From Bernardetia sp. ABR2-2B (GTDB taxonomy: Bacteria; Bacteroidota; Bacteroidia; Cytophagales; Bernardetiaceae), in contig NZ_CP147020.1 in the NCBI RefSeq assembly GCF_037126435.1, positions 4,725,001 through 4,789,000 of the forward strand: a DNA stretch of 64,000 nt, written 5' to 3'. Both the position numbers and the translations under genes were made by a program. Shown here in pieces: positions 2,643-35,842 of this stretch; position 1 is the first letter of the stretch; every line of letters begins with the position of its first letter. The notes beneath the pieces are model-generated. The model was not told the DNA's origin. It did no database searches and saw nothing but the letters and a program-made list of their open reading frames with translations.

Positions 2643-2748
2643 CATTGCATTAAGGGAAAAGAAATAGAGAAATAATAATAAAAGTAGTTGTTGTTTTGTC
2701 TTATTAAAATATAAAGAGTAATAAAAGTAAAATAATTTTTTATTTTTG

Positions 2749-2779
2749 TTGTAAATCTAAAAAATACTCTTTACCTTTG
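2749..2779 (+). promoter_or_regulatory. Bacteroidota-type promoter (proximal, tRNA-Thr)
   Basis: TTG at 2749-2751, a 20-nt spacer and TACCTTTG at 2772-2779. The tRNA begins 14 nt after the -7 box, which fits a short 5' trailer. Confidence 0.7.
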
Positions 2780-2792
2780 ATGTATCAAAAAA

Positions 2793-2865
2793 GCCTTCTT
2801 AGCTCAGCTGGTAGAGCAATTGATTTGTAATCAATAGGTCAACGGTTCGATCCCGTTAGAAGGCT
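2793..2865 (+). tRNA. tRNA-Thr (anticodon TGT)
   Basis: A 73-nt cloverleaf. Acceptor arm GCCTTCT (2793-2799) pairs with AGAAGGC (2858-2864). The D arm contains AGCTCAGCTGGTAGAGC. The anticodon stem is ATTGA/TCAAT with loop TTTGTAA, giving anticodon TGT (2826-2828), which reads ACA. The T arm has the standard GGTTCGATCC core. CCA is not encoded. Two promoters lie upstream. Confidence 0.97.
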
Positions 2866-3031
2866 CAATATTATTTTATAGATTCGTTTATAAAATATTG
2901 AAGTGTAAGAGTGATAAATTGCACAAAATACTAAATTCCGATTCAGACTAAAAACTTTAGGTAAGTTTTAGATTGAATCGGTTTTTTTATGCCTTTTGTT
3001 TTTATCAAAAGTTTCTAGTTTTTATATTTTG

Positions 3032-3039
3032 TATCTTTG
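3032..3039 (+). promoter_or_regulatory. -7 box of the beta-helix lipoprotein gene
   Basis: TATCTTTG matches TANNTTTG 36 nt before the ATG at 3076. No clear -33 TTG at the right distance is visible. The box overlaps an in-frame TTG at 3037 that could be mistaken for a start codon. Confidence 0.5.
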
Positions 3040-3075
3040 TCATCCACAAAAATAATCAAAATACGCTCTCAAAGA

Positions 3076-4497
3076 ATGAATCCTATAATCCAATCAGCCA
3101 AACTATTTTCTATAAAAAATAGCTTTTATTTTATCCTCTTTAGTGTTTTATCAGTTTCTCTTTTTTCTTGTGAGCCAAAAGATGAAATGATTAGTGCAGA
3201 TACAAGTAATAGAATTAGCTTTTCGCCTGATACTGTCTTTTTTGATACGCTTTATACTGGATTTGAGTCGCCTGTCAGACGTGCTAGTATCAAAAATTTT
3301 AATGAAGAAGCTCTAAATATTTCACGTCTTTATCTTCAAACTGGAGAAAATTCGCCTTTTCGTCTGACGATAAATGGAGTAGAACAGCAAGAAGCAACTG
3401 ATATTTTTTTAAGAGGAAATGATAGTTTACGTGTTTTTGTAAATATTCTTCCTCCTACTTTGAATACTGATGAAATAACAAAATTAGAAGATTTTTTGGT
3501 GGTTGAAAGTAATGGAAACACGGAGCGATTGCCTTTGGTAGTTTGGTTACAAGACGGAATTTTATTGGAAGATTCTGTTTTGGATTGTCAGACGGTTTGG
3601 AGTGGGCAAAAACCATATATTGTTAAAGGAAGTGTTTTGGTAGAGGAAAATTGTAAACTGACAATAGAGGCAGGAGTAAAAGTAGCTTTTCTGACAGATG
3701 CAGCACTTTTGGTAGCAGGTTCGTTAGAAATTAATGGAAATATGACAGAAAATGTAGAGTTAGGAAGTTTTAGAAATGATGGAAGTTTTGAAAATGCCTT
3801 AGGACAATGGTTTGGCGTTTTGTTTGGAGAAAACAGCAAAAATAACAGAATCTCTTATGCTACTATCGAAAATGCTACCGTAGGAATCCGTTTCGGAACG
3901 CCTGATAATGATACAATTCCAGACTTGATTATTGAGAATACAGAAATTAGAAATATGGCTGATGTAGGTGTTTTTTGTCTAAACTCTGATGTTTTGATTC
4001 AAAATACACTTATTCATAATTGTTTGAACCGTACTTTTTCGGCTGGAGCAGGAGGAAATTATTATTTTTATAATAATACCTTTTCCAATTTTGGATTCAA
4101 CTTTTTCAGAGATGAACCTTCTTTTGAGCTTTCAAATACTTTAGCATTTGTAGATACGTTAGGAAATCAGCAAATTATTAGAGACAATCTAAGAGCCTAT
4201 TTAATAAATAATATTATTTGGGGAAGTATAGATGAAGAACTAATTTTGTTTGCTTCTCCAGAAGCTAGTTTTCAAACCTTTTGGAACTCTAATTTAGTCA
4301 AAACACAGCTTTTAGATACTTCATTACCAAATATTTTGAATGAAAATCCTAAGTTTGTAGATGCTTTTAATGGAAAGTATGGGTTAGATTCGCTTAGTCC
4401 AGCCATAGATACTGGTCTTAATATTGACTTACAGATAGATTTGGAAGGCAAAGTTAGGGGTGATCAGCCTGATATTGGTGCTTTTGAGAGGGAATAA
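3076..4497 (+). CDS. Lipoprotein with right-handed beta-helix repeats
   Basis: The start is set at ATG 3076 (473 residues), because an upstream in-frame TTG at 3037 lies inside a -7 promoter box. A lipoprotein signal peptide ends in LFSC (Cys about residue 32), followed by E-P-K-D. Residues about 45-160 form a beta-rich domain (SPDTVFFDTLYTG). Residues about 180-440 show the beta-helix pattern: a GSVLVEENCKLTIEAG segment, repeated N-x-I/T-x-N-A turns, then the C-terminal SPAIDTGLN and DIGAFE signature typical of choice-of-anchor-Q type proteins. Likely a surface or periplasmic lipoprotein that binds or processes polysaccharide; no catalytic residues are clear. Confidence 0.8.
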   Translation: MNPIIQSAKLFSIKNSFYFILFSVLSVSLFSCEPKDEMISADTSNRISFSPDTVFFDTLYTGFESPVRRASIKNFNEEALNISRLYLQTGENSPFRLTINGVEQQEATDIFLRGNDSLRVFVNILPPTLNTDEITKLEDFLVVESNGNTERLPLVVWLQDGILLEDSVLDCQTVWSGQKPYIVKGSVLVEENCKLTIEAGVKVAFLTDAALLVAGSLEINGNMTENVELGSFRNDGSFENALGQWFGVLFGENSKNNRISYATIENATVGIRFGTPDNDTIPDLIIENTEIRNMADVGVFCLNSDVLIQNTLIHNCLNRTFSAGAGGNYYFYNNTFSNFGFNFFRDEPSFELSNTLAFVDTLGNQQIIRDNLRAYLINNIIWGSIDEELILFASPEASFQTFWNSNLVKTQLLDTSLPNILNENPKFVDAFNGKYGLDSLSPAIDTGLNIDLQIDLEGKVRGDQPDIGAFERE

Positions 4498-32619: not shown

Positions 32620-32771
32620 CTCATACTCTTTCATAAATGCGATATAAATATAAAATCAAATTGTACGATTTAAAATTTTAGACTATTTTTAATCTGATTT
32701 TAGATTGAACCTAAGTTAGAATAAAACGACACAAAAATACTGACCAATGATTTTCATAAATTACTATGTTT

Positions 32772-33498
32772 GCCGTTACGATGACCAACAACTCATACAC
32801 GCACAGAAGTCAATCACTTTTCCAAAACTTCATTGACTAGCCCATCAAAAACATATAAAAAATGAATCAAGAGGAAATCAGAGAGGAACACGAATACATA
32901 GGTTTTTTCACAGTTACTATTTTGAAATGGCAAAGATTGCTTAAACTTCATAAATACAAACAGATTATTTTAGATAGTTTGAAGTATTTGGTAGAACAGA
33001 AAAAAATAAAGGTCTATGCTTTTGTGATTATGCCAAATCATATTCATTTGCTTTGGAAAATAAACGAACCTTATCTTTTAGAAGATGTGCAACGAGATTT
33101 TTTGAAGTTTACAGGACAAGCTATGTATCGTAATTTGCTCAAAAATCATAAAGAGGTATTAGCTCTTTTTAGAGTAGATTTAAAAGATAGAAAATATCAA
33201 TTTTGGAAACGTAACTCTCTCACTACTTTTTTGTACTACCGAAAAACAATAGAACAAAAACTAGATTATATTCATAACAATCCAGTACAAGGAATATGGG
33301 AATTAGCAGAATCATTAGACAAATATCCGTACAGTTCATATAATTTCTATGAATTTGATGATACAACTACCTATCCTTTTCTAACGCATTATATGGAAGA
33401 ATTTGAATAAAAGTCTGTTTTTTTTGATTTCAGCTTTTTGGTTGTGTGGGAAGTTAGTAGATTTGTGGGGTATGTTTGTTGTTGGTCATCGTAACGGC
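32772..33498. mobile_element. RAYT unit bounded by 21-nt inverted repeats
   Basis: A 21-base sequence starting GCCGTTACGATGACC at 32772-32792 recurs as its exact reverse complement at 33478-33498. Between them is a single gene, a REP-associated tyrosine transposase. A further palindrome AAGCCG...CGGCTT (33499-33527), containing another ACCAACAACGGC, and a T-run follow. This matches known RAYT loci, in which the gene lies between REP sequences in opposite orientation. Confidence 0.8.
32862..33410 (+). CDS. REP-associated tyrosine transposase (Y1/HUH family)
   Basis: 182 residues, intact. The Y1 transposase core is visible: GFFTVTILKW (first strand), VYAFVIMPNHIHLLW (HUH-type metal-binding His pair, about residues 55-70), DVQRDFLKFTGQ, and K-L-D-Y-I-H-N-N-P-V-Q-G near residue 140, whose Tyr is the candidate nucleophile, then YPYSSYNFY. 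Such single-domain enzymes, related to IS200/IS605 transposases, cut and join single-stranded REP palindromes. The flanking perfect 21-nt inverted repeats are its likely substrate. Intactness suggests it is or recently was active. Confidence 0.88.
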   Translation: MNQEEIREEHEYIGFFTVTILKWQRLLKLHKYKQIILDSLKYLVEQKKIKVYAFVIMPNHIHLLWKINEPYLLEDVQRDFLKFTGQAMYRNLLKNHKEVLALFRVDLKDRKYQFWKRNSLTTFLYYRKTIEQKLDYIHNNPVQGIWELAESLDKYPYSSYNFYEFDDTTTYPFLTHYMEEFE

Positions 33499-33536
33499 AA
33501 GCCGAAACTAAAGACCAACAACGGCTTTTTTTTAAT

Positions 33537-33647
33537 GTTTTGGGATTTTTGGAAGACCAACAAGAACGCAGAGTTAAAAATGCTGTAAAAGAATTGAATT
33601 TAGGTAGTGATGACATGAAAACCAAAACATTTAATTTTAAACAATAA
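33537..33647 (+). pseudogene. Possible C-terminal remnant of a lost gene
   Basis: An open stretch with protein-like composition and no start codon (FLEDQQERRVKNAVKELN, then DDMKTKTFNF and TAA) begins right after the RAYT unit's T-run. It may be the tail of a gene truncated when the RAYT unit arrived. Chance is not excluded. Confidence 0.3.
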
Positions 33648-33668
33648 TGATTATTCTATTTGATTAAT

Positions 33669-34175
33669 ATGGAAATTTTAAAATACGATAATAGTAATTT
33701 AACTAATGCGAGGATATTCGTTTCTTTTTTAAAGAATGATAGAATTTCATACTATTGGACGATTGAAGTCGGTAACGATGTAAACACTTTTATCTGTCTT
33801 GACTTTTTAGAAATTGAAGGTATATACCTACCAGCTCAATTAGAAAGGAAAATTGTTATTCAAAATAGGGAGGAAGAGTTAATCTTACATACTATAATAA
33901 TAGACAATTCTGGAAATAAAGTTTTTTCATCTATGTCAATTGAATTTTTACTATTTGATAGTGTAAAACAAGAGTTTAAATTAAATTTTTTACTAAAAAA
34001 ACTAGATTTAGAAGTTAGTTTTAATGGTATTGTTTCTTTTAGTGGTTTCTTCTTACATAATTTCGATAAACAATCTGCTATTTTTTTTTCTAAAAAATTA
34101 GATATAAGTGGGAATTTAAAAGAATTATTGAATAAAGATAACAGAAGATTATATTACCATTTATCCCAGCTGTAG
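33669..34175 (+). CDS. Uncharacterised protein between two RAYT loci
   Basis: 168 residues from ATG 33669 (an in-frame TTG lies three codons earlier). Not recognised. No signal peptide; beta-rich N-terminal two thirds (ARIFVSFLKNDRISYYWTIE, VIQNREEELILHTIIID) and a polar C-terminus. AT content and isolation among mobile and repeat sequences suggest an acquired gene. Possibly another immunity-type or accessory protein, but nothing in the sequence proves it. Confidence 0.55.
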   Translation: MEILKYDNSNLTNARIFVSFLKNDRISYYWTIEVGNDVNTFICLDFLEIEGIYLPAQLERKIVIQNREEELILHTIIIDNSGNKVFSSMSIEFLLFDSVKQEFKLNFLLKKLDLEVSFNGIVSFSGFFLHNFDKQSAIFFSKKLDISGNLKELLNKDNRRLYYHLSQL

Positions 34176-34215
34176 CCCCCGTTGCACGTAGTGTTCCAAA
34201 AAAATAGTAGTTGTT

Positions 34216-34438
34216 AAGCCCCAGTTGGGCTTAGAATGAAAAAATAAAATTGTTAAGCGTTGTCTATGACTACGATTTATCAGTTCAGCAAATCTTAGAT
34301 TTGCAAGTCCAGTAGGTATTTTCAGATTTGCGAGTGGTAGTAAGTATTTACTTGATAACATAAATCTGAAGATTTATATAATTGATAGATCTTAGTTATA
34401 AACTAAGCTCAACAACTAAACAAGTATTTTAATACTTG
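34216..34438. repeat. Cluster of successive hairpins
   Basis: Perfect stems in order: AAGCCC/GGGCTT (34216-34232), GCAAATC/GATTTGC (34288-34304), AAGTA/TACTT (34342-34353), ATAAATCT/AGATTTAT (34360-34377), CTTAGTT/AACTAAG (34391-34407), CAAGTATT/AATACTTG (34421-34438). In addition TTCAGATTT (34321-34329) pairs with AAATCTGAA (34362-34370), which excludes the 34360 hairpin. AGATTTGC-A/G-AGT occurs twice (34297, 34325). No gene overlaps. It lies directly before the RAYT pseudogene. Confidence 0.85.
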
Positions 34439-34497
34439 CTTTACAGTGTATGAGTTTACTTTTTCTATAAAAAACTGTATCTTTCCAATAAAAAAGT

Positions 34498-35052
34498 ATG
34501 AGTGAAAGAGCATACAGTATCAATAATCCTGATGGTATTTATTTTGTTACTTTTTCTGTTGTGAATTGGATAGATATTTTTGTTCGACAAAGGTATAAGG
34601 ATATTATTGTAGATAGTTTAAAGTATTGCTAAACTAACAAAGGACTAGAGATTTTTGGTTGGTGTCTAATGAGTAGCCATATTCATTTAATTATACGAGC
34701 AAAAGAGAGCTATAACTTATCTGATATTTTGCGTGATTTTAAAAAGTTTACTTCTTCTCGTCTTATAAAATCTATTTCAGATAGAGATGAGCCAGAAAGC
34801 AGAAGAGAATGGATGTTGTGGATGTTCGAAAGAGCAGCCAAGAAAAATAGTAGAAACACAAATTATCAACTTTGGCAACAAAACAATCACGCAGAAGAAC
34901 TTTTTAGTGATAAATTTTTGCATCAAAAGCTAAATTATATCCATAATAATCCTGTTGTTGAAGGCATTGTAGAAGAGGCAGACCACTATTTATACAGTAG
35001 TGCCAAAAACTATCAAGATGAAAAAGGGTTGATAGAAGTGATTTTTATTTGA
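34498..35052 (+). pseudogene. REP-associated tyrosine transposase broken by one stop
   Basis: The reading frame from ATG 34498 runs to TAA 35050-35052 with one internal TAA at codon 45 (34630-34632). Either side is good RAYT sequence: IYFVTFSVVNWIDIF before, then GLEIFGWCLMSSHIHLII (HUH motif), DILRDFKKFTS, YQLWQQNNHAEEL and KLNYIHNNPVVEGIV after. Relatives usually have Gln at the stop position, so one CAA-to-TAA change would explain it. It belongs to a different subgroup from the intact copy at 32.9 kb. Reinitiation at ATG 34669 would lack the first strands. Confidence 0.85.
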
Positions 35053-35068
35053 TTTTTTGTGGGGAGTA

Positions 35069-35094
35069 CGTCGTTTGTGAGGACACAAACAACG
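35069..35094. repeat. REP-like hairpin downstream of the RAYT pseudogene
   Basis: CGTCGTTTGTG (35069-35079) pairs with CACAAACAACG (35084-35094), one C-A mismatch, loop AGGA. Its reverse complement begins GCCGTTGTTTGTGT, identical over 14 bases to the solitary hairpin at 61801. Confidence 0.8.
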
Positions 35095-35127
35095 GCAAAA
35101 CGGAGTGTGTTTAAATTTTAGAATTAC

Positions 35128-35158
35128 TTGCAAAGCAATAAAATTAGTCTTACCTTTG
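35128..35158 (+). promoter_or_regulatory. rpsL promoter
   Basis: TTG (35128-35130), a 20-nt spacer and TACCTTTG (35151-35158), in the context GTCTTACCTTTGCA shared with tRNA promoters. The leader to rpsL is about 280 nt and holds no gene; I see only AT-rich sequence in it. Confidence 0.8.
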
Positions 35159-35440
35159 CAGTTCTGAAAAAACACATATTTCCTTGCAAAAAGAACGAAT
35201 TGTATCAAATTCATTTTTTATAAAAAGAAAATCAATTTTTCAGACGTTGCTAAACTTATTAAATTTTATTCTAGCACACTGCTTAAATTCCTCACCTACG
35301 ATATACTTTTTTATTAGTAAGATAATAGAATTACTACTAGGCTTAGGAGTGTTTGAAGAACAGACTGGCAGAGTTTCAGTTTTGTTCCAATAGACTTTTA
35401 GAGAAGAACAGTATTTAAGTGGTCTAAACAGTTTCAAGAA

Positions 35441-35842
35441 ATGCCTACTATTCAACAATTAGTTCGCAAGGGACGCAAAGAAATCATTAAAAAATCGAAA
35501 TCTCCAGCGTTGGACTCTTGTCCTCAAAAACGTGGAGTTTGTACTCGTGTTTATACGACTACACCAAAGAAACCAAACTCAGCAATGCGTAAGGTATCTA
35601 AAGTTCGTTTGTCTAATGGTATTGAAGTAATTGCATACATCCCAGGCGAAGGACACAACCTTCAAGAACACTCAATCGTACTCGTCCGTGGTGGTCGTGT
35701 AAAAGATTTACCAGGTGTTCGTTATCATATCGTTCGTGGTGCTTTGGATACCTCTGGAGTTCAAGGTCGTAAGCAATCACGTTCTAAGTATGGCGCAAAA
35801 CGCCCTAAACCAGGTGCTGCCGACGCTACAAAGAAAAAATAA
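35441..35842 (+). CDS. rpsL: 30S ribosomal protein S12
   Basis: 133 residues. Decoding-centre protein. The conserved [13 protein letters not shown] loop and [12 protein letters not shown] segment are intact, with the lysines at the two classic streptomycin-resistance positions (E. coli K43 and K88 equivalents) unchanged. It is the first gene of the str cluster, but 230 bases separate it from rpsG, far more than usual. Confidence 0.98.

What the first reader, a model, noticed from the sequence alone, without database searches (positions are those of the whole stretch)
34216..34438. Dense run of perfect hairpins with mutually exclusive pairing
Six hairpins follow each other within 225 noncoding bases, most with perfect 5-8 bp stems. 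One segment (34362-34370) can pair either locally or with 34321-34329, giving two alternative folds, as in attenuators. A 12-base word is repeated with one change. Nothing known to me explains it; it could be a structured RNA, a recombination or packaging site, or an array of tiny palindromic elements used by the adjacent RAYT.
Basis: seen in the sequence. Interest (0 to 1): 0.7.

Follow-up and report, generated by a model that had tools for sequence, protein, structure and literature searches.

The report
RAYT transposase's mobile hairpin repeat
The run of hairpins is one copy of a palindromic DNA repeat that goes with the transposase gene beside it and is very probably mobile; copies tend to sit right behind small, mostly unclassified genes, sometimes in arrays, which hints that such genes may travel with it.

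Summary
The hairpins are real and far above chance. They are one copy of a dispersed repeat: at least 32 places in the window's genome, present in 6 of 6 other same-genus genomes and one other genus. A full copy has C-rich tips and two arms with two hairpins each. Over 41 copies three hairpins covary clearly and the fourth hardly varies; arm-to-arm pairing shows no excess. The "alternative fold" and repeated 12-mer come from a 20-nt insert found in 0 of 34 other copies. The repeat is the 5' flank of an IS200-like RAYT gene, broken here by one in-frame stop, open in a sister genome. In 66 of 75 related Bacteroidota RAYT loci the flanks match as inverted repeats; far flanks in 0 of 66. This fits the barely described "atypical secondary structures" of subclass 2.6 tnpA(REP) genes. 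The new-looking part is placement: 66 of 74 copies with an ORF end nearby (95 in all) lie co-oriented behind a stop codon, often in same-direction arrays of small genes. Best reading: a palindromic element moved as single-stranded DNA (inferred). Boldest open reading: RAYT-driven, integron-like gene cassettes. An RNA attenuator is not supported.

The parts
34176..34218 (+). Left-end fragment of another copy: C-rich tip (34176-34197), linker and the first bases of an arm, directly before the main copy
   Evidence: 97.7% match of 34176-34219 to a copy in L030; coordinates
34219..34234 (+).
   Evidence: shared tip in the alignment; coordinates; hairpin 34216-34232
34253..34279 (+). Hairpin H1 of the left arm, imperfect here
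   Evidence: 33 two-sided changes against 10.1 in shuffles, 0 of 300 (41 copies); coordinates
34288..34304 (+). Hairpin H2 of the left arm, nearly invariant
   Evidence: 94.7% paired; 2 two-sided changes against 0.3, 17 of 300 shuffles reach it
34324..34343 (+). 20-nt insert private to this copy; source of the repeated 12-mer and of the alternative pairing
   Evidence: 0 of 34 other aligned copies
34360..34377 (+). Hairpin H3 of the right arm (the least well kept)
   Evidence: 80.1% paired; 25 two-sided changes against 9.7, 0 of 300
34388..34410 (+). Hairpin H4 of the right arm
   Evidence: 40 two-sided changes against 16.1, 0 of 300
34421..34438 (+). Further perfect hairpin in the leader between the element core and the RAYT gene; not part of the element core
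   Evidence: leader differs among RAYT-bearing copies
34498..35052 (+). RAYT-A (IS200-like Y1 transposase) gene, broken by an in-frame TAA at 34630-34632
   Evidence: stop-to-stop pieces and stop; Y1_Tnp 21.7 bits on the downstream piece, under the 23-bit cut-off; REP_Tyr_transpos 57.9 bits, under the 80-bit cut-off; open homologue in G002
33660..34175 (+). 171-aa ORF of unknown function whose stop lies just before the element
   Evidence: no Pfam match; found in no other of the 59 genomes searched
33478..33525 (+). 48-nt palindrome of another repeat family (C), directly downstream of the first RAYT
   Evidence: same palindrome downstream of 3 of 3 RAYT-C copies aligned
32862..33410 (+). RAYT-C gene, open; a partial copy of its palindrome lies upstream at 32772-32792
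   Evidence: REP_Tyr_transpos 74.7 bits, under the 80-bit cut-off; Y1_Tnp 22.6 bits, under the 23-bit cut-off

Best explanation
The block is a palindromic element of the RAYT / tnpA(REP) kind, standing as the 5' flank of a RAYT gene. Shown: a dispersed multi-copy family with recurring tips, conserved local hairpins of which three of four covary, close linkage to one RAYT subfamily, and presence/absence differences between sister genomes. Inferred from the known biochemistry of IS200/IS605 and TnpA(REP): when one strand is exposed (replication, repair) the hairpins fold, the transposase recognises them, cuts near the tips and rejoins the strand elsewhere; most copies are non-autonomous and moved in trans. 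The RAYT copy here is broken, so this copy depends on another RAYT or no longer moves. The hairpins thus most likely work as single-stranded DNA, not as an RNA switch.
For: At least 32 places in the own genome (40 of 102 first-look candidates scored); 8 of 59 genomes, all 7 of the genus and G008. Local hairpins 92.0% paired, 86 two-sided changes against 31.2 in shuffles (35 copies); 100 against 36.6 with all 41. Element directly upstream of RAYT-A at 9 of 10 places. Open G002 homologue passes the REP-associated tyrosine transposase model, 104.6 bits against 80. Flanks match as inverted repeats in 66 of 75 Bacteroidota RAYT loci, far flanks in 0 of 66, mismatched loci 12 of 75. Same plan beside a RAYT of another family, G029. 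trpS-kbl gap without elements in G001, G004, G005, with elements in G000, G002, G006. One G008 gene with the element at a place where a near-identical copy has none.
Against: Cleavage or transposition was not observed. 'Further standard pair types' is lower than in shuffles (23 against 25.1) and H2 hardly varies. RAYT-A units show no palindrome conserved at the 3' side. 9 of 75 Bacteroidota loci lack matching flanks. Most places of the closest RAYT-A relatives are broken or fragments, and the intact G002 copy lies beside an element without the right arm. Most element copies are not beside a RAYT-A. No clean empty site for the window's own copy.
Confidence: 0.8

Rival explanations
1. Extension of the best reading: integron-like cassettes. 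A RAYT excises and inserts a small gene together with the element behind it, cutting at the like ends of two successive elements, and so builds arrays of exchangeable genes, some of the toxin/immunity kind.
For: 66 of 74 copies with an ORF end within 250 nt stand co-oriented behind a stop codon. Copies cluster: 13 of 27 and 17 of 28 merged places have a neighbour within 3 kb against about 1 at random; same direction in 6 of 8 and 13 of 13 neighbouring pairs. Different genes at trpS-kbl in G000, G002 and G006 before a similar last element. One gene recurs in a G001 array with DNA similarity from the end of one element to the end of the next. RHS, Gln_amidase and Imm35 matches among the neighbours.
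Against: No excision observed. Homologous recombination between like repeats could build the same arrays. Of three G008 copies of one gene, two share gene and element, the third has only part of the element, and one lacks the upstream element. Three distant homologues (33-37%) of another array gene have no element in their loci. At least 21 of 95 copies have no ORF end nearby.
Confidence: 0.22
2. The elements are passive scattered repeats; arrays and exchange arise by homologous recombination and by displacement of toxin/immunity modules, with elements kept behind genes because they are harmless there.
For: Near-identical copies offer homology (95.7% over 828 bp in G001 and others). Displacement of effector/immunity modules is proposed for Vibrio (PMC5361080, passages); REPs in general lie mostly downstream of coding regions (PMC3733652, abstract passage).
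Against: Harmless placement alone does not explain why the element's direction follows the gene (66 of 74). Does not compete with the element itself being a RAYT element.
Confidence: 0.4
3. A structured RNA element: attenuator, 3'-end stabiliser or terminator of the gene before it.
For: Position behind stop codons; good RNA fold; G-U pairs occur among the kept pairs.
Against: No Rfam match there; 0 terminator-like sites in 33400-35450; arm-arm fold without excess covariation; alternative fold private to this copy; linkage to RAYT genes.
Confidence: 0.06
4. attC sites of a true integron.
For: Folded sites behind small genes in same-direction arrays; GTTAAGC resembles the attC R' box (recalled).
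Against: No match over the TIGR02249 integron-integrase cut-off in the own genome (4 weak matches, as in all 14 control genomes). Linkage to RAYTs instead.
Confidence: 0.02

Closest known systems
Flanking structures of tnpA(REP) subclass 2.6 = RAYT group 5 (PMC6006769; passages seen)
   Same: Bacteroidetes; transposase with W-Q, YIH[QN]NP and SS motifs; flanked by 'atypical secondary structures' with copies elsewhere in the genome
   Different: The passages give no sequence, no covariation and no link to gene arrays. RAYT-A here has SHIH in place of NH[LIV]H and is multi-copy in G001
TIRtrons / TIRYT (PMC3733652; passages and section 16 seen)
   Same: RAYT gene flanked by terminal inverted repeats, some self-complementary, forming moderately abundant dispersed families
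   Different: PMC6006769 assigns most described TIRYTs to subclass 2.1. RAYT-A has its palindrome only upstream; RAYT-B and -C of the genus fit the two-sided plan better
REP / BIME / REPIN with RAYT (PMC6006769, PMC8266576; passages seen)
   Same: Dispersed, intergenic, hairpin-forming repeats next to a RAYT gene
   Different: Classical REPs are 20-40 bp with a GTAG-type foot; here about 200 bp, four hairpins, C-rich tips, and RAYTs in several copies
Orphan effector/immunity arrays (PMC5361080, PMC3482391; passages seen)
   Same: Strings of small variable genes, partly immunity genes, behind toxin genes
   Different: The passages seen name no palindromic element between the genes, and PMC5361080 states that no integrase evidence exists
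Integron cassettes / attC (recalled)
   Same: Gene plus folded recombination site behind it, same direction, arrays
   Different: No integron integrase over cut-off in the own genome; other sequence and a HUH-type enzyme nearby

Membership tests
tnpA(REP) subclass 2.6 / RAYT group 5 system | REP-associated tyrosine transposase of the Y1 / HUH kind | tested here: met
   Open G002 homologue: NF047646 104.6 bits (cut-off 80), PF01797 35.1 (cut-off 23). The window's own broken copy and RAYT-C are under both cut-offs
tnpA(REP) subclass 2.6 / RAYT group 5 system | Subclass motifs NH[LIV]H, WQ, YIH[QN]NP, SS | tested here: inconclusive
   Read by eye, no subclass profile at hand. RAYT-A: SHIH, WQ, YIHNNP, SS; RAYT-B: SHIH, WQ, YIHQNP, SS; RAYT-C: NHIH, WK, YIHNNP, SS
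tnpA(REP) subclass 2.6 / RAYT group 5 system | Gene flanked by secondary structures whose copies occur elsewhere in the genome | tested here: met
tnpA(REP) subclass 2.6 / RAYT group 5 system | Binding, cleavage and strand transfer by the cognate transposase | not testable with these tools
   needs biochemistry
TIRtron | Terminal inverted repeats on both sides of the RAYT gene | tested here: not met
   RAYT-A: no conserved palindrome downstream in the 5 copies aligned; RAYT-B 5 of 7 and RAYT-C 2 of 3 (one of them partial) have both sides
Classical REP/REPIN | 20-40 bp hairpin with GTAG-type tetranucleotide at its foot | tested here: not met
   About 200 bp with four hairpins; GTAG occurs inside stems and tips, not as a clear foot (by eye)
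Integron | Integron integrase | tested here: not met
   0 over cut-off in the own genome; other genomes not searched
Rfam RNA family | Match at gathering score | tested here: not met
   3 tRNAs only in the 64 kb

The most novel reading that the evidence does not exclude
Bacteroidota RAYTs run an integron-like system without an integron integrase: a hairpin-recognising single-strand transposase moves 'gene + palindromic element' cassettes, some of them orphan toxin/immunity genes, and thereby supplies a recombinase for orphan immunity-gene arrays.
Probability: 0.22. Interest if true: 0.85.

Novelty: new variant of a known kind. Interest (0 to 1): 0.5.

Why it matters
It gives sequence, anatomy and covariation to structures that the survey passages seen (PMC6006769) only call atypical, shows matching inverted flanks at 66 of 75 Bacteroidota RAYT loci examined, and ties one such family to arrays of variable small genes. 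If the cassette reading holds, it offers a testable recombinase for orphan toxin/immunity arrays; for Vibrio, PMC5361080 states that no integrase evidence exists (passages).

Tried and rejected
Attenuator / RNA switch: rejected, because the switch needs an insert private to one copy and arm-arm pairing shows no excess covariation. Known RNA family: none there. Terminator: 0 found in 33400-35450. Integron attC: no integrase over cut-off in the own genome. Clean empty site at the window's own place: not obtained; the gap before rpsL differs in the six sister genomes, both flanks matched only in G002 and G006, and G005 has a lone C-type palindrome there. Replication direction as cause of the orientation bias: in G001 both directions occur within 380-446 kb, following the genes, but replichores were not mapped, so this is weak. 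Recurrence of the neighbour ORF 33660-34175: none in the other 58 genomes searched. Cassette boundaries: one cross-genome pair fits, the three G008 copies are mixed, three distant homologues (33-37%) of another array gene have no element in their loci. A possible displaced toxin tail at about 33528-33648 was not verified. Literature: searches (open-licence PMC only) listed no paper whose title or abstract start links RAYT palindromes to cassette arrays; one search was for a genus name.

Rows and limits: searches scored only part of their first-look candidates (40 of 102; 13 per genome at most; 40 of 144), so copy numbers are lower bounds. The loci for searches were picked from those hits. The 73 ORFs were hand-picked neighbours. 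Alignment A2 used 35 of 41 full copies (left out: two of L028, L035:8627, L041:3889, L044:2577, L045:4437, which are duplicate or degenerate); the count on all 41 agrees. One search kept 80 of 134 relatives; searches used 75 of these 80 (the rest had too little flank); the far-flank control had 66. One search left out L099, which overlaps L040. In one search one minus-strand place of the own genome (1403703) is the right arm of a plus-strand copy and accounts for one of the two discordant pairs.

Full report
1. Observation. The block at 34216-34438 is real. It has 6 perfect hairpins with stems of 5 bp or more against 2.08 in shuffles (3 of 1000 reach 6; 0 of 1000 reach its 39 stem bp); for stems of 6 or more its 34 stem bp exceed the best (29) of 638 windows sampled along the 64 kb. 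It folds better than all 200 shuffles as DNA (z -5.56) and as RNA (z -6.51).

2. A repeat family. A search of the own genome with the block gives 32 places, with 40 of 102 first-look candidates scored. Of 59 genomes including the own, 8 have it: the own, all 6 others of the genus, and G008 of another genus of the family. G001 has 29 places with one of its own copies as query (40 of 144 candidates scored).

3. Anatomy. Aligned copies show a tip such as CCCCAGTTGGGCTTAG or CCCCCGTTGTTCGTAGTGTTCC, an A-rich linker, a left arm with hairpins H1 and H2, a spacer, a right arm with H3 and H4, and, in copies without a RAYT, an end such as CCCAACAAGGGG or CCCAACGGGG. The main copy of the window begins with its tip at 34219 and is preceded by the left-end fragment of another copy, 34176-34218. 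It carries a 20-nt insert found in 0 of 34 other aligned copies; this insert makes the repeated 12-mer and the alternative pairing on which the attenuator idea rested.

4. Which structure is kept. On 35 copies the four local hairpins have 92.0% of cells paired and 86 two-sided changes against 31.2 (sd 4.9) in shuffles; sliding the partners lowers pairing to 27-42%. Against this, 'further standard pair types' is 23 against 25.1 in shuffles. The arm-to-arm fold, though the lowest-energy RNA fold of this copy, has 26 two-sided changes against 24.3, a covariation score that 44 of 500 shuffles reach, and two pairs mismatched in 34 of 35 copies. With all 41 full copies: local 100 against 36.6 (0 of 300 shuffles), with H1 33 against 10.1, H2 2 against 0.3 (17 of 300), H3 25 against 9.7, H4 40 against 16.1; the outer arm-arm pairs 19 against 20.0 (231 of 300). 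The copies are related, so shuffle counts are not probabilities. The conserved unit is the local hairpin; H2 hardly varies.

5. The transposase. The gene at 34498-35052 is a RAYT with one in-frame TAA at 34630-34632. A G002 homologue is open and passes the NCBIfam REP-associated tyrosine transposase model with 104.6 bits (cut-off 80); the window's downstream piece alone gives 57.9. Ten places hold the closest relatives (79% identity or more to the query), most of them broken or fragments. The element lies directly upstream at 9 of them; the tenth, in G006, has only leader and a fragment. The G002 element beside the open copy lacks the right arm. RAYT-A occurs at 5 places in G001, so it is multi-copy there; two of these units are 95.7% identical over 828 bp. 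RAYT-A copies show no conserved palindrome downstream (5 aligned). Two further RAYT subfamilies of the genus have palindromes of their own: RAYT-B upstream in 7 of 7 and downstream in 5 of 7 aligned copies; RAYT-C downstream in 3 of 3, upstream fully in 1 and partly in 1, the window's. The first RAYT of the window is RAYT-C.

6. Beyond the genus. In named genomes 134 relatives were found and 80 loci kept. In 75 with enough flank the 350-nt flanks match each other as inverted repeats in 66; far flanks in 0 of 66; flanks of mismatched loci in 12 of 75. Hairpin content is 18.0 and 14.4 stem bp in the near flanks against 5.9 in far flanks. CCC occurs at the tip in 33 of 66. In G029, of another family of the order, an element of the same plan with other stem letters lies upstream of a RAYT (by eye); that genome gave 36 matches, several being two hits on one copy.

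7. Placement. 95 oriented left arms were placed, in loci of 6 genomes. 74 have an ORF end within 250 nt on the left; in 66 the ORF is co-oriented, so its stop faces the tip (binomial p 1.8e-12, but copies are not independent); on the right, 51 of 76 are co-oriented (p 0.004). Copies cluster: 13 of 27 merged places in the own chromosome and 17 of 28 in G001 have a neighbour within 3 kb, against means of 0.77 and 0.91 at random; neighbouring pairs point the same way in 6 of 8 and 13 of 13. Of 73 hand-picked neighbour ORFs at most 25 match any Pfam family at E 0.01; the matches include RHS repeats (4), Gln_amidase (2) and Imm35 (2).

8. Movement. Between trpS and kbl the own genome has three small genes each followed by an element, the last one incomplete; G001, G005 and G004 have about 70, 100 and 235 nt between the conserved flanks and no element found; G006 and G002 have other genes before a similar last element; in G003 only the kbl side matched. 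One gene of this array recurs in a G001 array at 75% protein identity, its DNA similarity running from the end of one element to the end of the next. A G008 gene occurs three times: two copies share gene and element over 770 bp at 95.7%, the third has only part of the element, and one copy has an upstream element where another has none. Three distant homologues of another array gene have no element in their loci. The window's segment of about 32766-35128 was not found before rpsL in the six sister genomes, apart from a lone C-type palindrome in G005; both flanks matched only in G002 and G006.

9. Explanation. TnpA(REP) cuts and rejoins folded single-stranded palindromes in vitro (PMC8266576, passages). 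[quoted passage not shown] The element fits that. Shown: family, structure, linkage, presence/absence. Inferred: recognition, cutting, transposition in trans. The cassette reading is compatible but not demonstrated; homologous recombination between repeats is the simpler account of the arrays.

10. Verdict. Observation confirmed, interpretation partly supported. The element is a new variant of a known but hardly described kind; the placement behind genes is the interesting part.

Noticed in passing
L029:5217-6754, L030:2650-4256, L048:4117-4193 and 2680-4071, L050:4526-6049: An IS4-family transposase gene (463 aa, NF033590 290.7 bits against 160) stands at four places of the own genome with pieces of the element on one or both sides, as if this IS prefers the palindrome as target; one copy is interrupted.
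   Followed up: partly
L026:4187, L036:5245, L037:2655, L050:3915: Unrelated proteins end in similar tails (PPSWA, PPSGLE, PPDGRSVPKK, PPDERSVPKQ); for PPSWA the frame runs into the element tip, which supplies the stop. The other three were not checked base by base.
   Followed up: partly
L041 (G002:C3, 37.7 kb contig) and L052 (G000:C2, 35.0 kb contig): The open RAYT-A copy and an open RAYT-B copy lie on small contigs that may be plasmids; a ParA-like reading frame lies beside the RAYT-B copy (by eye).
   Followed up: no
L035 and L036 (G001), e.g. L036:3491-4040: In G001 arrays about 550-bp compound repeats recur, made of our element and a second palindromic family.
   Followed up: partly
window 33528-33648: A short reading frame between the RAYT-C palindrome and the 171-aa ORF could be a displaced C-terminal toxin tail; unverified.
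   Followed up: no
window about 32766-35128: The gap before rpsL holds different genes in the sister genomes and looks like a hot spot for gene turnover.
   Followed up: partly
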